IMG/VR virus record: IMGVR_UViG_3300000234_000005
Span: 1 to 61,910 of that record
Reading direction: 5' to 3' (one strand)
Source of the DNA: a virus
Length of the DNA: 61,910 bases
The translations under genes were made by a program, and so were the position numbers. The notes under the pieces were generated by a model, which saw nothing but the letters and a program-made list of their open reading frames with translations, made no database searches and was not told where the DNA came from. Positions 11,805-23,300 of this stretch are shown here, one piece after another (position 1 is the stretch's first letter; each line of letters begins with the position of its first letter).

Positions 11805-14800
11805 CTAGAATATAGTACTACCACCATACTTAACATTTTTATCCTCTTCCCATTCACTTTGCCACATAAAACCATCTTTATCAACTTTAGTAGCCCATTC
11901 TTCATCAGGAGATGTATCAGGAGAGAAGGTATCCATCTCACTTAATTGATTCATTGTGTCTATACAATTATGTACTACTATACCGTTGGCTATAAAATTA
12001 TGAGTATTAGCTACTTCTAGATTGAATGTCGGAATTAATCTTTTGTCCTTTTTTTCGCAGAGAGATATTAAGTTGGCATTCTTTGCAACAGCTTGATTTT
12101 TTTCTATGCCACAAAAATGTACCGCCACACCATTCACAAGTGAATTTTTTCTGTCTAGCAGGGTCTGCTTGTATTGCTTGAAATTCACATGCGCGGTCGC
12201 AATAGGAAGTCCTGTTAACGAATCTAGCTGTAATTGGTTTTTCACACCACCCACATTTTTTATCGTAGTATTGAAGTATTTTTTCCCTGCTTCGATATAA
12301 GTTTTGTCTTGCATGTTCTTTACCTGCTTCTGTTTTATGCCATTCGTTAGCCAATGACCTAATTTTTGCCAGATGCTCTTTTTGTTTTTCCATGTCTCCT
12401 TGAAATCCGTGATGGCTGCTATGTAAGCTTGCAGAAAGTAACTCCAAGTTAGATAAGTTGTTATTATCTTTATTTTCATCTTTATGATGGACATGAAATC
12501 CCTTAGGCTGCTGCCCGTTCGCTTGTTGCCAAACATACTGGTGCAGCCACTTTCTTTTTCCGTCAGGGAATAATGTTGTGCTTTGATAGTATCCTGACTT
12601 TTTACGTGTCCATTTTCTTTCTTCGTATTCTTGTTGTTCCATGATATAACCTCGTCCTCTGGTAGCAATAAGGCAGCAGGTATATACCCCGCTGTGGTCA
12701 ATACAGGATGTTTATCAGACATAGTTAATTCACTACCATCCGAAAATACATAAGTATTGACCTCTTTAACACCAGTCATCATAACTGCTTCAACAGGTTG
12801 TGTCAACATATCAATATCAAACGTCAGTATTTCATCTCCGATCTCCACATCAGATATTTTTTTGTACGTACCATTAGCCATAGAAACTAAGGTATCACCT
12901 GCTACGCAGTCATCGTGCTTAAGTGCTTTATGACCACCAGCTAACGTATATTTACTTAGCTCATTAACTAATTCTTCTAGCAATTCATTAAAAAATACTT
13001 TATGGCTTATTAATTCTGGCTTAGGAAACCATATCTTATTTTGCTTAAACTTAGGCTGCACCCCTGTAATAAATCTAGTAGTCTTATCACTAGCTGGTCT
13101 AATGCCTGCTTCTTTACTACCCTTCTTCTTAGCTAACTGAAACCATACATTCTTACTCATCATCATATCAGTAAGAATACTCAAGAATCCACCTTGCTGT
13201 CCACTAGTCTCAATACCAACACTTAATGGCTTCCACTTATGCACATATCTAAACAAGTCCTCAAGGTTGTCTTGCATACCTTGTCGCTTGCATTGTCCAT
13301 CAACTAGGAACCAACTCTCATCACTACCAATAGCCCATACACTGATAACACTAAAGTCAGCACTTTTCTTTGTACTAGTAGCAAAATCCGTACTTATGTA
13401 AAAGTTATAATGATCCTTATGTTTTAGCAGTACATCAGGTTCATACCATCTAATATCATCTTCATCAACTAACAACGTAGTTAAATCGGTAACTTCTAAC
13501 ATATATTCTGTATAGAAGTTTTGTGCCATGCCTGCTGACTTATATTGGTTATACATCTTAGAGGTATAATCAAAACTAAATCTATCAGGCCACACACTAT
13601 CATATTCTATTTCTGTACAAGGAAATTTAGAGCATAATGGAAATTTTTCAATTCTATATTCCCCACTATTTTTTAATTTATGAAGCAGATCAGCTTCACT
13701 TAATGGAGTACCAATATAAATAATTTTGTGCTTCATTGGATTTAGTGCTGGAAGAGCAGAACTAAACCAATTCATTTCAATAGTGCTTCTTAGTGCTTCT
13801 GATGTCATTACTTCAGATGGCAGAATATCATCCGCTACCAGTATACTAGGACGATGCCCTCTCTTACTACGAATACCACGCCAGTTAGTTGACATACCGC
13901 GACCAGTAATAATAGTTTCAACATTATTTTTATTTACCAGCTCAATTTCATTATCTACACATCTCTGAATGGTAAGTAAGTTTTTCAAAAAGTTGCTATT
14001 TTCAATTTTAGATTGCACATTCTTAAAAAATGCTTTTACGTTACCTTCTAAGCTAGCTCCTAAAAATACTATAAATGGAACCATACCAAAATTTGGCCAG
14101 TGCCCGATAACACTTATATATATTATCGCGTACTCTAGCAGGGTACTGTTGTGGGTAATTTGATACCCTGTTGTAAGGAACAGGTGCTCTTCATTATCAA
14201 CAGTAATACACTGAGTTGGTACAGTTGCAACTTTACGTACTTCTTTTATTTTTTGATAATCTCTAATATGCTCAGCTTTAAATTCAACTTTATTTGCTTT
14301 TCTTTTAAGCTTAAACACATTGAAGTTTCTGTGCTTTATGTACACTCTATAATGCCCAGCATGGCCATTATCTCTGTAAGATAGCTTAGCAGACATTCCT
14401 AATGACCTAACTAGCTCAACCACATCTTTAGCCAGTACTTCATTACAACTGGAAAAACTAGAAGCTAACCCACTTTCTACAGTACCATCTGTATCCATTA
14501 AACCTCTTAATAACTCTAGCCTTTGCGTGATAGAGCCTAATTTATACATAGCAGGTATAAACTTGTTATGTGTATTAACATTCAACCCTAATGCTTTTAT
14601 TTTTGAACCAATACCCAGTATACTTCTAAATTGACTGGTACGTGCAGGTGTGGAATTTACGCCTTTATCATATGGGATATAACTAAATAATTCATCGGCA
14701 TCATCATTGTGTGAAGTTACTCTTGAAGCCCCACTCAATTTATCAACGTTACCATCACCAATTATTACCCCTAGAGTGTATGGATCTATAGGTAAATCTT

Positions 14801-15356
14801 TCTCTGGGTATTTTACCGGTTCTGGTAAACGCACATAATATTTTTGTTCTTTACCGTTTGGGTTATGGTAACTTACTTTACGAGTGTACCACTGAGTATT
14901 ATTAATATATTCTGTGCCTAATATACTTTTTACTTTTTTATCTCTGTTACTAGTAAACACTTCCCATAAGTGGTCCTTGCAAGCAGTAATTACGTTACCA
15001 TCTGCAAATTCAATCTCGTAAGTATCATCATTAAATACATCGCTTTTGTTTATTACACTAGTTAGCTCTCCTGAATGATCATATATTTTATCCCCTATTT
15101 GAATATCTTTAATAGTGACAGGACCATTAATCGTGTACACCAGCTCATCTAATGCTAAAGCTTTTCCAAGTCCACGTGTGCATTCAATAATTATATTCCA
15201 ATCTTTTTTCTTACTACTGAATAGTCCATCTGCAACCTTATAATGAACTTCAGGAGATGTGTTTTCTTCTAACCCAGCAGCTCTAATAAATGCAATAAAT
15301 TTTAGCGCTTCTTCACTAGGTACATAAATAGCTGTTTGTGTAATATCTGTAATCAT
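11805..15356 (-). CDS. terL: Terminase large subunit with two inteins
   Basis: 1183 codons; removal of inteins at residues 66-403 and 817-1130 leaves 531 residues, the usual TerL size. The ATPase Walker A is TRGLGK joined to STLLEYA after splicing of intein 1; Walker B is RPSILVADDILPSE near 502-515. The nuclease domain has STDFATSTKKSADFSV near 655-670, VGIETSGQ near 713, and HDD816, whose Asp precedes intein 2. The enzyme packages DNA through the portal and cuts it. Both inteins sit in catalytic motifs, so an unspliced protein should be inactive. Start overlaps the small-subunit stop (ATGA). Confidence 0.9.
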   Translation of the reverse strand: MITDITQTAIYVPSEEALKFIAFIRAAGLEENTSPEVHYKVADGLFSSKKKDWNIIIECTRGLGKALALDELVYTINGPVTIKDIQIGDKIYDHSGELTSVINKSDVFNDDTYEIEFADGNVITACKDHLWEVFTSNRDKKVKSILGTEYINNTQWYTRKVSYHNPNGKEQKYYVRLPEPVKYPEKDLPIDPYTLGVIIGDGNVDKLSGASRVTSHNDDADELFSYIPYDKGVNSTPARTSQFRSILGIGSKIKALGLNVNTHNKFIPAMYKLGSITQRLELLRGLMDTDGTVESGLASSFSSCNEVLAKDVVELVRSLGMSAKLSYRDNGHAGHYRVYIKHRNFNVFKLKRKANKVEFKAEHIRDYQKIKEVRKVATVPTQCITVDNEEHLFLTTGYQITHNSTLLEYAIIYISVIGHWPNFGMVPFIVFLGASLEGNVKAFFKNVQSKIENSNFLKNLLTIQRCVDNEIELVNKNNVETIITGRGMSTNWRGIRSKRGHRPSILVADDILPSEVMTSEALRSTIEMNWFSSALPALNPMKHKIIYIGTPLSEADLLHKLKNSGEYRIEKFPLCSKFPCTEIEYDSVWPDRFSFDYTSKMYNQYKSAGMAQNFYTEYMLEVTDLTTLLVDEDDIRWYEPDVLLKHKDHYNFYISTDFATSTKKSADFSVISVWAIGSDESWFLVDGQCKRQGMQDNLEDLFRYVHKWKPLSVGIETSGQQGGFLSILTDMMMSKNVWFQLAKKKGSKEAGIRPASDKTTRFITGVQPKFKQNKIWFPKPELISHKVFFNELLEELVNELSKYTLAGGHKALKHDDCVAGDTLVSMANGTYKKISDVEIGDEILTFDIDMLTQPVEAVMMTGVKEVNTYVFSDGSELTMSDKHPVLTTAGYIPAALLLPEDEVISWNNKNTKKENGHVKSQDTIKAQHYSLTEKESGCTSMFGNKRTGSSLRDFMSIIKMKIKIITTYLTWSYFLQAYIAAITDFKETWKNKKSIWQKLGHWLTNGIKQKQVKNMQDKTYIEAGKKYFNTTIKNVGGVKNQLQLDSLTGLPIATAHVNFKQYKQTLLDRKNSLVNGVAVHFCGIEKNQAVAKNANLISLCEKKDKRLIPTFNLEVANTHNFIANGIVVHNCIDTMNQLSEMDTFSPDTSPDEEWATKVDKDGFMWQSEWEEDKNVKYGGSTIF
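11967..12908 (-). mobile_element. Terminase intein 2 (C817-N1130) hosting an out-of-frame HNH gene
   Basis: 314 residues. N-terminal splicing blocks are plain: CVAGDTLVSMANGTYKKIS, VEIGDEILTFD, and block B LTMSDKHPVLTTAGYIPA. C-terminal blocks are FNLEVANTHNFIANG and IVVHN before Cys1131. Between them (about residues 905-1117) the intein frame encodes a Lys/Gln-rich stretch without any intein endonuclease motif. That stretch is the alternate-frame reading of an HNH endonuclease gene (12007-12642). The insertion site is the conserved terminase nuclease HDD. The intein frame stays open through all 636 bases of the nested gene. Confidence 0.9.
12007..12642 (-). CDS. HNH homing endonuclease nested in intein, different frame
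   Basis: 211 residues, same strand as the terminase but offset by two bases. It begins MEQQEYEERKWTRKKSGYYQ, has the HNH core GFHVHHKDENKDNNNLSNLE followed by HSSHH, a basic helical region, and two Cys4 zinc-finger-like pairs (CGWCEKP...YCDRACE and CEWCGGT...CCKECQ). A purine-rich RBS (GAGGACGAGG) precedes the ATG at 12642, so it can be translated independently. It should cut intein-less terminase alleles and drive spread of the whole intein. The gene fits exactly between intein blocks B and F. Confidence 0.88.
   Translation of the reverse strand: MEQQEYEERKWTRKKSGYYQSTTLFPDGKRKWLHQYVWQQANGQQPKGFHVHHKDENKDNNNLSNLELLSASLHSSHHGFQGDMEKQKEHLAKIRSLANEWHKTEAGKEHARQNLYRSREKILQYYDKKCGWCEKPITARFVNRTSYCDRACEFQAIQADPARQKKFTCEWCGGTFLWHRKKSSCCKECQLNISLRKKGQKINSDIQSRSS
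14148..15161 (-). mobile_element. Terminase intein 1 (A66-N403) with LAGLIDADG endonuclease
   Basis: 338 residues inserted inside Walker A between TRGLGK and STLLEY. N-terminal block ALALDELVYTINGPVTIKD with IQIGDKIYDHSG; two LAGLIDADG motifs, LGVIIGDGNV (195-204) and LLRGLMDTDGTV (283-294); C-terminal blocks CITVDNEEHLFLTTG and YQITHN. The first residue appears to be Ala rather than Cys/Ser, so it may splice by the Ala1 pathway in which the +1 Ser is attacked directly. Known families of terminase inteins use this same site. Confidence 0.88.
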
Positions 15357-16385: not shown

Positions 16386-17444
16386 TTAACTACTTTCAAA
16401 TTTAGCTTGGGGTGTATACTTATTTCCTTTGTACCTAAATTCATCTTTTATACTTTCATTATCTGTAAACCTATTTAAGTTATTTACGCTTACTAGTTGG
16501 TATCCTTTATGTGTTCTTAAATATCCTTGTTTTACTACTGTATCAACTATTTTATAGATACTTTTACCATTTAAGTTTAATATTCTAGCTGCTGTATTTT
16601 GTGAAACAAAAGATCCTGCCAGTCGCCCACTATCAGCAAAATAGGCATTTATTTTTATACCCTGAGTTTCTTTTATAGCTTCGGCATTTCTTGTCATATT
16701 TTCTTTAAAAGTTATAACTTGAATATTAGAAAATAGATAAGGTTTTTTAGGGTCTATCCTGTCAATGGAAGGCACTAAATTTTTATCATATCCACTGTTT
16801 TTGTATTTTTCATATAACTGGGCGTAGTTATTATTAGAGATAATCCATTTTTTAAACTCCTCGTAAGTGTACGCCGGTGCTGGATGACCTCTAGTTTTTG
16901 AGTGTTCTATTTGATTACTATATATTCTGTATGGCAGTTGACTAAAAGAGTTGGCCGTTTCCTTGGTGCATATTTTACATTTATGGTTTAGTTTATCTTT
17001 TTTACTACTATTACAAGTAAATTCATTACTTGGTTTTAATTCTTTGCATGAATAGCATTCCTTATATATTATTTCATTTTTACTATTTACTATGGAGTCA
17101 AAAGCGGTTATAGCCTCATCTACATCTAATGAGAATAATTCGGTATACCCAGAAAAGGAATGTTTAGGATAATGTCTTTTATCTTTAAATTTGTTATGAA
17201 AAGCAGTCTCTTTTATAAACACGTCGTCCACTTCCACATCCCTTAGTAATTTAGCATACGCGCAATTGCCTTTGTGCGCTATTATATAACTTTCCATTAT
17301 ACTAATAAAACGTTTATGACTACTATCCCCACTACTTTTACCACATTTTACATAACTTCCTGTAGAATCCTCAAACAAAATGAGGTATAAGCGTTCTTTT
17401 TGTTTTTTAGTGCTTATTGAATTGGTGCTAATCTTGAACTTCAT
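16386..17444 (-). CDS. Free-standing homing endonuclease: GIY-YIG-like, zinc ribbon, HNH-like, NUMOD1
   Basis: 352 residues. Residues 18-110 look like a T5orf172/GIY-YIG domain (RLYLILFEDSTGSYVKCGKS). Residues 128-162 form a Cys4 ribbon (YKECYSCKELKPSNEF, then CKICTK), as in phage HNH enzymes. Residues 225-255 have SIDRIDPKKPYLFSNIQVIT, an HNH-type active region. Residues 265-320 resemble a NUMOD1 DNA-binding repeat (FVSQNTAARILNLNGKSIYK). It lies between the small-terminase region and a second GIY-YIG gene, a typical location for endonucleases that move neighbouring intergenic DNA. Confidence 0.75.
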   Translation of the reverse strand: MKFKISTNSISTKKQKERLYLILFEDSTGSYVKCGKSSGDSSHKRFISIMESYIIAHKGNCAYAKLLRDVEVDDVFIKETAFHNKFKDKRHYPKHSFSGYTELFSLDVDEAITAFDSIVNSKNEIIYKECYSCKELKPSNEFTCNSSKKDKLNHKCKICTKETANSFSQLPYRIYSNQIEHSKTRGHPAPAYTYEEFKKWIISNNNYAQLYEKYKNSGYDKNLVPSIDRIDPKKPYLFSNIQVITFKENMTRNAEAIKETQGIKINAYFADSGRLAGSFVSQNTAARILNLNGKSIYKIVDTVVKQGYLRTHKGYQLVSVNNLNRFTDNESIKDEFRYKGNKYTPQAKFESS

Positions 17445-17713
17445 TAGTGTAATACCGAATATTTTCTACAATTAGCTACAATAGCTAAGTCATTATTATC
17501 TAATATAAACCATTCTCCGCGTAATCTTTTATCTAAGAATAACTCATGGAAGTAAGTTTCCATATACAAATAATTAGCACACCTTTTTACAAACTGTACT
17601 TTAATATCAAATGGATTACCCGTCTGTAAATCCGATAATCTTTTTTTCATTGGCTGACAAGTAACTCCTATTTTATACAATCCATTAGATTCAAGTACAT
17701 ATAATTTACCCAT
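17444..17713 (-). CDS. GIY-YIG endonuclease-like protein (T5orf172/MUG113 type)
   Basis: 89 residues: LYVLESNGLYKIGVTCQPMK carries the YVLE...YKIG variant of GIY-YIG; a basic helix (KKRLSDLQTGNPFDIKVQF) and a catalytic-type MET/HELF segment follow (YMETYFHELFLDKRLRGEWF). It stops at the ATG of the larger endonuclease downstream. Likely a homing nuclease or a small DNA repair nuclease. Confidence 0.72.
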   Translation of the reverse strand: MGKLYVLESNGLYKIGVTCQPMKKRLSDLQTGNPFDIKVQFVKRCANYLYMETYFHELFLDKRLRGEWFILDNNDLAIVANCRKYSVLH

Positions 17714-20141: not shown

Positions 20142-20783
20142 ATGACTACTATGACCATCGAACAAGCTGTACAGTCAGCAAAAGACAAAATTGCAGCAAT
20201 CAAAGCAAACGCTGCTGTTCAACGTCAGCTTAAAACCTTGACCAATGAAAAATTCCTTGAAGCAAAAGCTTCATTGGAAATCAAGCAGGACGAAATCAAT
20301 ACCCTGAACTCATCCATCGACGTCTGCAAGGGCGTAGTTGAGCAGATTCCTGTGTACGATAATCGTACAAAGCAGAACAGAAAATGGAACGGATCGAGTA
20401 ACTTCAACTTCGACATTCCTGTTCAACTCCTCACCAACCTATGTAGCAACGTACAGTACGCGAACTCTGCCCACAAGCAACTCATGCTTGCATCCATCAA
20501 CCTCCCAGAGTTGTTAGTTATTGAAATCAATCGCCTGTTCTCTCAGAACTCACGCTACAGTTCTGTACAGGAGACAATCCTATCCGGTACAGCAGGTACT
20601 ACCGAAGAATACGTGAAAATCGTATCTCTTGCAGGTGACTACCTTGGCATTGAATTCGATACCACGCAATTTGCCCAAGCCAACCTCGATCGTATCGAGA
20701 CTAAGGCTTTGGTAATTGCTGAACGTATGGAAGCTCAACATGACGAGGCGAAGCTCCTCTATCAGAAGGCACTGAGCCTGTAA
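20142..20783 (+). CDS. Early protein immediately before the RNA polymerase, unknown
   Basis: 213 residues. N-terminal coiled coil (EQAVQSAKDKIAAIKANAAV), a central NRKWNGSSNFNFDIPVQLLT motif, and a helical C-terminus (TKALVIAERMEAQHDEAKLL). It precedes the RNA polymerase gene by 60 bases on the same strand with an RBS CGGAG. In N4, accessory proteins near the RNAPII genes help promoter use, which is a possible but untested role. Confidence 0.7.
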   Translation: MTTMTIEQAVQSAKDKIAAIKANAAVQRQLKTLTNEKFLEAKASLEIKQDEINTLNSSIDVCKGVVEQIPVYDNRTKQNRKWNGSSNFNFDIPVQLLTNLCSNVQYANSAHKQLMLASINLPELLVIEINRLFSQNSRYSSVQETILSGTAGTTEEYVKIVSLAGDYLGIEFDTTQFAQANLDRIETKALVIAERMEAQHDEAKLLYQKALSL

Positions 20784-20843: not shown

Positions 20844-23300
20844 ATGCGTGCTAACATCTTAAACGGCCAACTTCCTTTCCCTTCACTAGCTAAAGTTGAA
20901 GACCTATTTGGTAAAGAAATCGCTACCTTTGCTAACTCCATGTGGGGAGCCATTTGGCATAACTACTTAGTCAGCAAAGGCTCAATCTCCTCCGCTTACT
21001 GGCATGACAAACTGAACAACTCCGAGGTATTCAACATCCTCGTAGTCTCTCTATCGAACGCTGGATGGATTGTATCTCACGCAATCCCCGAACGTAACTG
21101 GCTTGAAATTCACCTCAATGAATCAAAGCTTTACGAATTCGTATCAGCCAAAGAAATTGAAGAAGTACGTGCCAACTTCAAGTTTGCAAAGTACCGTCTG
21201 CGCAATACTGAAGCGCAAGCACCTGACCTAGTCCGTGCCAACGGTAAAACCAAAGTCACCGGCCTATACCGTGAAGGGTTTCAGAAAGCTGCCAATACCG
21301 AATTTAGTTTCGATATTGAAGCTCTACAAGCCAACAAGGAAGTCATTGGGAAGAACCTCACCAAGTCTATGACCAAAGTACGGGAATTCTATCCTGAAAT
21401 GGGAGCATCCATTGCAGACTACGATGCTATTAGCGTTGACATCCTTGACTGGCTCACTCACACCAAGGAAACCTTCACTCGCGGTAATACCTTCCTTGAT
21501 TCCCGAGGTCGTGCCATTAGTTCTTCTCTTTCCAAAGTAGCAAACCCAATATCTTCTAAAGATTTTCGAGCACTACTCATCATTCCCAAGAAGTATCGAG
21601 TCAAAGCTACCCAAGCTGGTGCAGATGCCATCTTCCTCTTCGTTGCAGAACTTGCTGGCTATAAAGCTGGCCCTTCAGTAGACGATAAGACAGCATATGG
21701 TATCGAATGCTGGTTGAGTAACTTCAACCATACATTAGATGTAACTAACGAGTCTGACCGAGCTGATGTGTACGAAAACATCTGGCTAACCCGTCTATAT
21801 GAAGACCTCAATAAGTTCTTCCAGCTCAAAGGTGTCGAGGGTGAACTGATCAAGCAATTCGCCTTATTCACTGGCGTATTTGATATGGATAGCACTCCAG
21901 ACTATGAGTGGACAGTACCTGTAGAAATCGACCAAGGTGCGTTGCCTAACATTGGCGCACTGTAAACCTTGTGAACTCAGGGAAAGCTAAGTCCGAAAGG
22001 ATATGCTAATCCTGATCTAAGCCTAGTAATAGGAAAGAGCAGAGACTATCGAACGACACAGTAATGTGAATCTAGTAGAGTAGGTACCAAGTGGTATCGA
22101 AGCGCAAGGCACTAGAAATAGTGATGATATAGTCCAATCCTTATAGAAATATAAGGCTGTACCATTAGTTTTGGTACGAGCAAGAATTAACGATTCTTGT
22201 TGAATAAAAGCAATGCTCCAGTACATCGCCATGCTCCTCAATGATGCTACCTTAGCTTCGTTAACAAACATGGTAGAAGGTACATTAACTGACCCTTGGA
22301 AAATTGAAGGACTACCACGCAAAATGGTAAAGGAAGCAGCAACTCCTATGCTGTATGGCTCTACGAAGAACGCTGCTGCACTTTGGGAGCAAAACAATAC
22401 TACCTATACCCTCCAACATATTGAAGTCTACAACAAGGCTCTCAGTACCGGAGGATTAGGTATTGCAAACTCCTTCAAAGACTTCGTTCTGAACTACTGC
22501 AAACCACAGGAGAAAATGCAAATCACCATCTGGAATGATACCTTTGATATCGAGTGTAATCGTTACCGCAATATTGGTGATAAAACCAATCTGTACAGGG
22601 TATACGACACTGAGTCAAAAGCTGTCAAATCAGTGTTCCATACCACCACTAAAGAAATAGCTGACTTGGGGCAATTCAAGCGTTACTTCCAGACACTGCT
22701 CGTTTTCTAACTGTGGGCGAGCAGTATAATATAAACAGGGTTAATTGCTGGAACGCTAATGGCTAACGCCTATGCCAATCAGCAGCCAAGCTTAGGTAGG
22801 AATACCTTTGAAGGTTCAGAGACTAGGATAAACAATCTAGAACAGATTATGAAATCCGTAAGCGAGTCAAGTGACCGCTGAAACGCCCTGCTCTACAGTA
22901 ATGTAGATGAAGATATAGTCCAGCACTCCATTGAAAAACGGAGACTAATTGACATACTTGTTAGGTAATTCAATTAGGTTCAGAGTAACGCCTGAATTAA
23001 TATCTGCACAACCTTGACTCACAAGTAGCTGATGAGGTTAGTTATGCTATTGCCTCGCAAGGTGGTTTCGTAATTGACATTCATGACGCATTTATTCTCA
23101 ATCCAGAGGATGCACCAACAGCTCGATCTGTGTATTCTCAACTAATGGAGGAAATCAGAAGCAACCGTAAGGATATTCTTACTGCTTTCTTCCAGTCCAT
23201 TGGAATCACCGCAGAAGCCTCAGAAGCATGGGAACAACTTCAGTCTAAGGTAACCCCATTGCCTGATGACTTTAAGTGCTTTATGATGGCTATGAAGTAA
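20844..23300 (+). CDS. T7-family single-subunit RNA polymerase, split by two group I introns
   Basis: Exons 20844-21942, 22211-22704 and 23007-23300 join to 628 codons. Spliced motifs match T7 RNAP: DSRGR at 219-223 (DxxGR); motif A D363-Q-G-A-S-M-L-Q-Y, re-created only by splicing and aligning with DGSCSGIQH; motif B R403...K407...Y415-G-S with the same spacing as T7 R627/K631/Y639; motif C IHDA at 556-559. It is much shorter than T7 RNAP (883), lacking most of the N-terminal promoter-recognition domain, like the two-subunit N4 RNAPII, here as one chain. It should transcribe middle genes. Family A DNA polymerase is excluded because YGS and HDA replace DNA polymerase motifs. Confidence 0.9.
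21943..22210 (+). mobile_element. Group I intron 1 in RNA polymerase gene (no ORF)
   Basis: 268 bases. Core elements are visible: AACTCAGGGAAAG (P-like), CCTGATCTAAGCC (Q-like), GCAGAGACTATC (R-like) and GATATAGTCC (S-like), with GACTA/TAGTC for P7. The 5' exon ends in T and the intron in G, as group I splicing requires, and these borders restore motif A in frame. Without splicing the frame stops at 21965. No endonuclease gene. Confidence 0.85.
22705..23006 (+). mobile_element. Group I intron 2 in RNA polymerase gene (no ORF)
   Basis: 302 bases. Classical core: TTAATTGCTGGAA (P), CAATCAGCAGCC (Q), GGTTCAGAGACTA (R), AAGATATAGTCC (S). Inferred joint GTT/CAC gives LLV-HNLDSQ, as expected before motif C. 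Without splicing the frame stops at 22710, so motif C would be lost. Confidence 0.9.

What the first reader, a model, noticed from the sequence alone, without database searches (positions are those of the whole stretch)
20844..23300. Minimal single-chain RNA polymerase with introns at motif A and before motif C
Seen: spliced polymerase of 628 residues with T7-exact spacing of motif B. Intron 1 splits the motif A codons (D363...Q370) and intron 2 falls 25 residues before motif C. Known: N4 RNAPII is a two-subunit T7-family enzyme that lacks the T7 N-terminal promoter domain. Inference: here the same type of short enzyme is a single gene product dependent on two RNA splicing events, which makes intron splicing a possible control point for middle transcription.
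Basis: partly seen in the sequence, partly recalled or inferred. Interest (0 to 1): 0.74.

Follow-up and report, generated by a model that had tools for sequence, protein, structure and literature searches.

The report
Single-chain phage RNA polymerase with introns
A metagenomic N4-like phage makes, as one protein, an RNA polymerase that its studied relatives build from two proteins, and its gene carries two self-splicing introns, one in and one near the catalytic-site codons; close relatives show the gene being split or joined at one hinge, which bears on how two-part polymerases arise.

Summary
Window 20844-23300 encodes a 628-residue T7-family RNA polymerase in three exons, interrupted by two full-length group I introns: 21943-22210 (268 nt, splits codon 367 in motif A) and 22705-23006 (302 nt, before residue 532). 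The enzyme is not N4 RNAPII but belongs to a sister lineage (Alteromonas phage AD45 type). The N4 subunit boundary does not meet intron 1; it maps about 110 codons upstream, to a linker at residues about 250-257. Of 16 polymerase loci read, 3 are single-chain (window, L029, L055), 12 two-chain and 1 cut off; all splits are at this linker. L011's two halves add up exactly to the single-chain linker, so fission or fusion has recurred there. Introns interrupt only 3 of 14 readable genes and similar interruptions of N4-like RNAP2 are published, so splicing as a control point is unsupported; mobile introns are likelier. New: single-chain enzymes in vRNAP-bearing N4-like records. Open: whether one chain is ancestral or re-fused, and actual splicing.

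The parts
20844..21942 (+). Exon 1: residues 1-366 plus one base of codon 367; small N-terminal domain, DxRGR motif (219-223), first part of motif A
   Evidence: ORF to stop 21965; alignments; PHROG 27203/22493 match
21591..21614 (+). Linker (residues about 250-257) that corresponds to the RNAP1/RNAP2 boundary of N4 and to the gene break in 12 relatives; no in-frame ATG/GTG/TTG in codons 241-275
21943..22210 (+). Group I intron 1, 268 nt, no endonuclease ORF, in motif A
   Evidence: RF00028 82.3 bits; P1/P10; same-site intron in L018 with 18 of 71 pairs changed on both sides and none broken
22211..22704 (+). Exon 2: rest of codon 367 to codon 531; motif B (R403, K407, YGS 415-417)
22705..23006 (+). 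Group I intron 2, 302 nt, no endonuclease ORF, just before the HNLDSQV block
   Evidence: RF00028 74.8 bits; P1/P10; same-site intron with a GIY-YIG gene in AD45, 74% identical over 219 nt
23007..23300 (+). Exon 3: residues 532-628 and stop; motif C HDAF (557-560)
   Evidence: PHROG 22720 match
20142..20783 (+). Upstream neighbour (213 aa), family phrog_22535, also directly upstream of the polymerase in L011

Best explanation
The gene encodes a small single-chain T7-family RNA polymerase of the lineage sister to N4 RNAPII, in an N4-like phage of the Alteromonas AD45 type. Shown from sequence: two intact group I introns, splice joints supported by pairing and by intronless relatives, and a continuous frame across the place where the polymerase of N4 and of 12 relatives is broken into two genes. 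Inferred: the phage makes this mRNA early, both introns excise themselves by guanosine-initiated transesterification, and the single 628-residue product transcribes the middle genes as N4 RNAPII does. Unspliced RNA would give only a 373-residue fragment without motifs B and C. The introns are most likely homing elements that lost their endonuclease genes and sit in or near conserved catalytic-site codons, not regulators. The linker is a place where this polymerase tolerates one chain or two, and lineages have changed between the two states there.
For: Introns; in intron 2 and its AD45 counterpart, P1 shows two exon-IGS pairs changed on both sides (G-C to A-T; read). Empty sites. Polymerase family; the fold of single-chain relative L029 (pLDDT 82.8) matches T7 RNAP (1h38_A, Z 25.5, 438 aligned, rmsd 4.2) and N4 RNAP2 (6dt7_B, Z 19.4, 301 aligned, rmsd 4.2). 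Single chain. Sister placement to N4 RNAPII: 97.2/99 and 99.5/99 support. N4-like context: AD45 vRNAP phrog_2206 E 1.5e-57; vRNAP in the records of single-chain L029 and L055.
Against: No transcript data: splicing, early expression and middle transcription are not shown. Similarity to known RNA polymerases by sequence alone is weak (phrog_2051 E 1.7e-7; PDB profile hit to N4 RNAP2 E 0.018; N4 RNAP1 profile match not significant). The window itself holds no vRNAP, being a fragment. The spliced window protein was not folded; the exon 1 model is poor (pLDDT 69.1).
Confidence: 0.85

Rival explanations
1. The introns act as a control point: splicing efficiency delays or gates production of the polymerase and so of middle transcription.
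For: Without splicing no motif B or C is made (stops at 21965 and 22710); both introns are in one gene.
Against: 11 of 14 polymerase genes readable over both sites lack them; introns at the same or nearby sites in relatives carry GIY-YIG or HNH-like genes, as mobile elements do; intron content differs between close relatives.
Confidence: 0.08
2. The polymerase is functionally two-chain: the single precursor is cut or re-initiated at the linker, so the fusion has no consequence.
For: 12 relatives encode two chains broken at this linker; N4 works as a heterodimer (PMC4496689, passages).
Against: No in-frame start codon in codons 241-275; the linker has the same length in three single-chain enzymes, with no added cleavage segment.
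Confidence: 0.07
3. The introns are decayed and the gene is a pseudogene or a set of broken fragments.
For: Introns have no endonuclease gene; exons lie in different reading frames.
Against: Full-length covariance matches, P1/P10 at both sites, 18 compensated pairs with L018 and none broken; conserved catalytic residues in all exons.
Confidence: 0.04

Closest known systems
N4 RNA polymerase II (gp15/gp16, Escherichia phage N4; PDB 6DT7)
   Same: Small T7-family enzyme with reduced N-terminal domain; DxRGR motif plus motifs A, B, C; its subunit boundary falls at the same linker by sequence and by fold; sister in the trees
   Different: Two chains; about 85 extra residues between the HSID block and motif C; no introns in N4
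Polymerase of Alteromonas phage vB_AmaP_AD45-P1 (gp044, gp046, gp048)
   Same: About 45% identical over the length; a group I intron at exactly the site of window intron 2
   Different: Two genes with an 84-aa ORF between; intron carries a GIY-YIG gene; no intron at motif A
Interrupted RNAP2 genes of Achromobacter phage JWAlpha, Vibrio phage phi 1 (motif B), Pseudomonas phage ZC08 and Pseudoalteromonas phage pYD6-A (motif C)
   Same: N4-like RNAP2 genes interrupted at catalytic-site codons; group I introns by Rfam in ZC08 and pYD6-A; published for JWAlpha as an interruption and for ZC08 as a homing endonuclease insertion (PMC3915230, PMC5418858)
   Different: Other insertion sites, two-chain enzymes, endonuclease genes nearby; no Rfam intron match in the JWAlpha and phi 1 loci
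T7 RNA polymerase
   Same: Single chain, same fold and motif B spacing, no insert before motif C
   Different: 883 residues with an N-terminal domain of about 265 residues; no introns

Membership tests
Group I introns (RF00028) | Covariance-model match over the whole core | tested here: met
   82.3 and 74.8 bits, model 1-253 of 253, gathering 50
Group I introns (RF00028) | U at the 5' site in a U-G pair with the guide sequence, G as last intron base, P1 and P10 | tested here: met
   both introns
Group I introns (RF00028) | Self-splicing | not testable with these tools
   needs in vitro transcription with GTP or RNA from infected cells
T7-like single-subunit RNA polymerases | DxRGR motif and motifs A, B, C with catalytic D, R/K/Y and HD | tested here: met
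   alignment with T7, Syn5, phiAB6, PQ5104 and six N4-like enzymes
T7-like single-subunit RNA polymerases | Right-hand polymerase fold of the family | tested here: met
   Met on the single-chain relative L029; the spliced window protein itself was not folded
N4 RNA polymerase II | Two chains (RNAP1 + RNAP2) | tested here: not met
   One frame across the boundary, no in-frame start codon there
N4 RNA polymerase II | Falls in one clade with the Schitoviridae RNAPII enzymes | tested here: not met
   The AD45-type lineage is sister to the six Schitoviridae enzymes, not inside them
N4 RNA polymerase II | Needs cofactors gp1 and gp2 on single-stranded promoter DNA | not tested
   gp1/gp2 homologues were not searched
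N4-like phages | Virion RNA polymerase | tested here: inconclusive
   No match in the window, a 61.9 kb fragment; present in 5 of the 9 records of this lineage that were searched

The most novel reading that the evidence does not exclude
Single-chain was the state of the common ancestor of at least the window, L011, L029 and L055 enzymes, and two-chain N4-type polymerases arose more than once by gene fission at one linker. L011 would be a recent fission: its halves keep every linker position (29 of 29 including the new start Met), a 177-nt spacer with a 54-aa ORF sits between them, and a 10-bp direct repeat (reached by 6 of 5,000 shuffles) flanks it. N4's heterodimer would then be an independent fission at the same place.
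Probability: 0.45. Interest if true: 0.75.

Novelty: new variant of a known kind. Interest (0 to 1): 0.62.

Why it matters
A review by the N4 polymerase laboratory states that the origin and advantage of the heterodimeric enzyme remain unclear and that all vRNAP-bearing species but two had a heterodimer (PMC4496689, passages). A 2017 paper proposed that a homing endonuclease split an ancestral single chain (PMC5418858, section read). The window and two relatives give single-chain enzymes in the sister lineage, and L011 a matched two-gene version, so the question can be tested by making, splitting and joining natural proteins. The spacer ORFs examined here did not look like homing endonucleases, which does not favour the endonuclease-split idea in this lineage.

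Tried and rejected
Rejected: intron 1 as the N4 subunit boundary. Rejected by topology test: all two-chain enzymes forming one clade with the single chains outside (AU p 1e-52 and 4e-9). Not decided: single chain ancestral against re-fused; neither is rejected (AU p 0.14 and 0.21), and the key nodes are weak (50.9/43 and 56.2/32). With L029 alone, before L055 was found, the tree nested the single chains among split ones, so the rooting is sensitive to sampling. Of 1,000 bootstrap trees, 984 need at least two changes of state inside the lineage and 16 need one; costs are equal for either ancestral state in 876.

Led nowhere: relatives sought with the window exons alone in viral contigs and with a two-row alignment in genome contigs, none found; N4 mini-vRNAP as a single-protein query, 0 of 7 records including AD45, later replaced by the PHROG profile; Rfam intron search of the JWAlpha and Vibrio phi 1 loci gave no match. 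The exon 1 model suggests a winged-helix-like fold for residues 1-100 (TFIIE, MarR and similar chains, Z 6-7.3; no Foldseek match with E under 0.001), too weak to claim. 6dt7_A (N4 RNAP1) did not appear among the rows shown.

Full report
Setting. The window is a 61,910-base linear IMG/VR virus record. Its closest named relative for this gene is Alteromonas phage vB_AmaP_AD45-P1, a phage with many N4-like annotations and no family assigned in its record. AD45 encodes a virion RNA polymerase by profile (phrog_2206, E 1.5e-57). The window has none, but it is a fragment.

Introns. Rfam finds two full-length group I introns. Shuffles of the guide region reach these scores in 1 and 0 of 10,000 cases. 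Intron 1 is 21943-22210 and splits codon 367; intron 2 is 22705-23006 and lies between codons 531 and 532. Neither holds an open frame above 48 codons.

Same-site introns. L018 has an intron at exactly the site of intron 1: 74.7% identical over 194 nt, with 18 of 71 predicted pairs changed on both sides and none broken. AD45 has one at exactly the site of intron 2, with a GIY-YIG gene inside. Two exon-guide pairs of P1 differ there by changes on both sides (G-C in the window, A-T in AD45; read). pYD6-A has an intron three codons further upstream. Intron 2 and that intron show 21 of 61 predicted pairs changed on both sides.

Empty sites. Of 14 polymerase genes readable over both sites (window, AD45, L011-L016, L018, L020-L022, L029, L055), 3 are interrupted (window, AD45, L018) and 11 are not. 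L014 and L015 lie on one contig. Uninterrupted relatives read DxSASMLQ (DMSASVLG in L029 and L055) and, mostly, LL[VI]HNLDSQV across the joints, as the spliced window does; L011, L021, L022, L029 and L055 vary slightly at the second.

The enzyme. Sequence profiles tie it weakly to RNA polymerases (phrog_2051 E 1.7e-7, phrog_414 E 2.2e-5; no Pfam match; N4 RNAP2 hhalign E 1.1e-5; N4 RNAP1 not significant). The alignment shows DxRGR, motif A (D363), motif B (R403, K407, Y415) and motif C (H557, D558) in register with T7. The model of the uninterrupted relative L029 matches T7 RNAP from residue 130 on (Z 25.5, 438 aligned, rmsd 4.2) and N4 RNAP2 from residue 271 on (Z 19.4, 301 aligned, rmsd 4.2). 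About 115 residues precede the T7-like core in the window enzyme (by alignment), against about 265 in T7. The whole lineage lacks the insert of up to about 85 residues that the six Schitoviridae enzymes carry before motif C. The names of the T7 motifs and their residues are recalled, not from a call.

One chain or two. Sixteen polymerase loci were read, the window included. Three are single-chain (window; L029, 660 aa; L055, 641 aa). Twelve are two-chain (AD45, L011-L016, L018, L020-L023; L023 shows only the first gene, and L015 starts inside it). L024 is cut off at the linker, open for a few residues past where the others stop. The break lies at one linker in all twelve, and the N4 boundary maps there by sequence and by fold. 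From the conserved R to AEL the single chains have 29 residues each; the L011 halves together have 29, the other split pairs measured 23-32 (13 loci measured, L015, L023 and L024 not). L011's spacer is 177 nt, holds a 54-aa ORF (DUF1737) and is flanked by the 10-bp repeat TACCTAAAGG (6 of 5,000 shuffles), part of which may serve as ribosome-binding site.

History. The lineage is sister to the Schitoviridae enzymes (97.2/99; 99.5/99). A single clade of all two-chain enzymes is rejected. So either the split is old and the single chains re-fused, or fission at the same place happened more than once; the tests do not choose. Because three single chains share the linker without an indel and L011 keeps it whole, I think the ancestor of window, L011, L029 and L055 had one chain. 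Spacer ORFs were scanned: 10 with Pfam and 3 of these also with PHROGs; none looked like a homing endonuclease. Two small spacer ORFs of L021 and one of L023 were not scanned.

N4-like context of single chains. vRNAP matches are present in the records of L029 (E 4.3e-80) and L055 (E 4.7e-72), so single-chain polymerases of this type occur beside vRNAP.

Literature. Interruption of N4-like RNAP2 is in print: JWAlpha and JWDelta (PMC3915230, passages) and ZC08, with a hypothesis that an endonuclease split an ancestral single chain (PMC5418858, section 10 read). That the origin of the heterodimer is unclear is stated in PMC4496689 (passages). PMC5746245, PMC3670811, PMC11654794 and PMC10654107 were seen in passages. 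Six full-text searches listed no title or abstract reporting a single-chain N4-type polymerase in a vRNAP phage; the library lacks most subscription journals.

Judgement. The splicing joints and the single chain are well supported from sequence; the function in middle transcription is by analogy with N4; regulation by splicing is speculation with evidence against it.

Noticed in passing
L047 (AD45), L051 (L029 record), L052 (L011 record), L053 (L014 record); L055 record C1:41845-61013: The virion RNA polymerase of this lineage matches in two separate open frames in all 5 records that hold it; in the 4 whose joint was read, the second frame has an ATG near the stop of the first. GenBank calls this a potential frameshift in AD45. 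In the L055 record the first part lies in a 6,654-codon open frame.
   Followed up: partly
window 11805-15356 (-) and 58926-61706 (+): The large terminase (intein splicing, Hint and LAGLIDADG matches) and a helicase (LAGLIDADG endonuclease match) look intein-bearing, so this phage appears rich in mobile splicing elements.
   Followed up: no
L018:6509-7487: A second group I intron with an ORF resembling homing endonucleases sits at the motif C codons (HDA|F), where the ZC08 and pYD6-A frames are also interrupted.
   Followed up: partly
L014 and L015 (contig IMGVR_UViG_3300045135_002242): The two ends of one 95.8 kb contig carry two different copies of the polymerase, possibly a chimeric assembly.
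   Followed up: no
window 26075-26575 (+), 16386-17444 (-), 17444-17713 (-): Free-standing HNH or endonuclease VII-like genes near the polymerase; a trans-acting homing role for the two ORF-less introns is possible but untested.
   Followed up: no
window 20844-21140: Residues 1-100 are predicted as a winged-helix-like fold with high confidence, but fold matches are weak; possibly a substitute promoter-contacting domain.
   Followed up: partly
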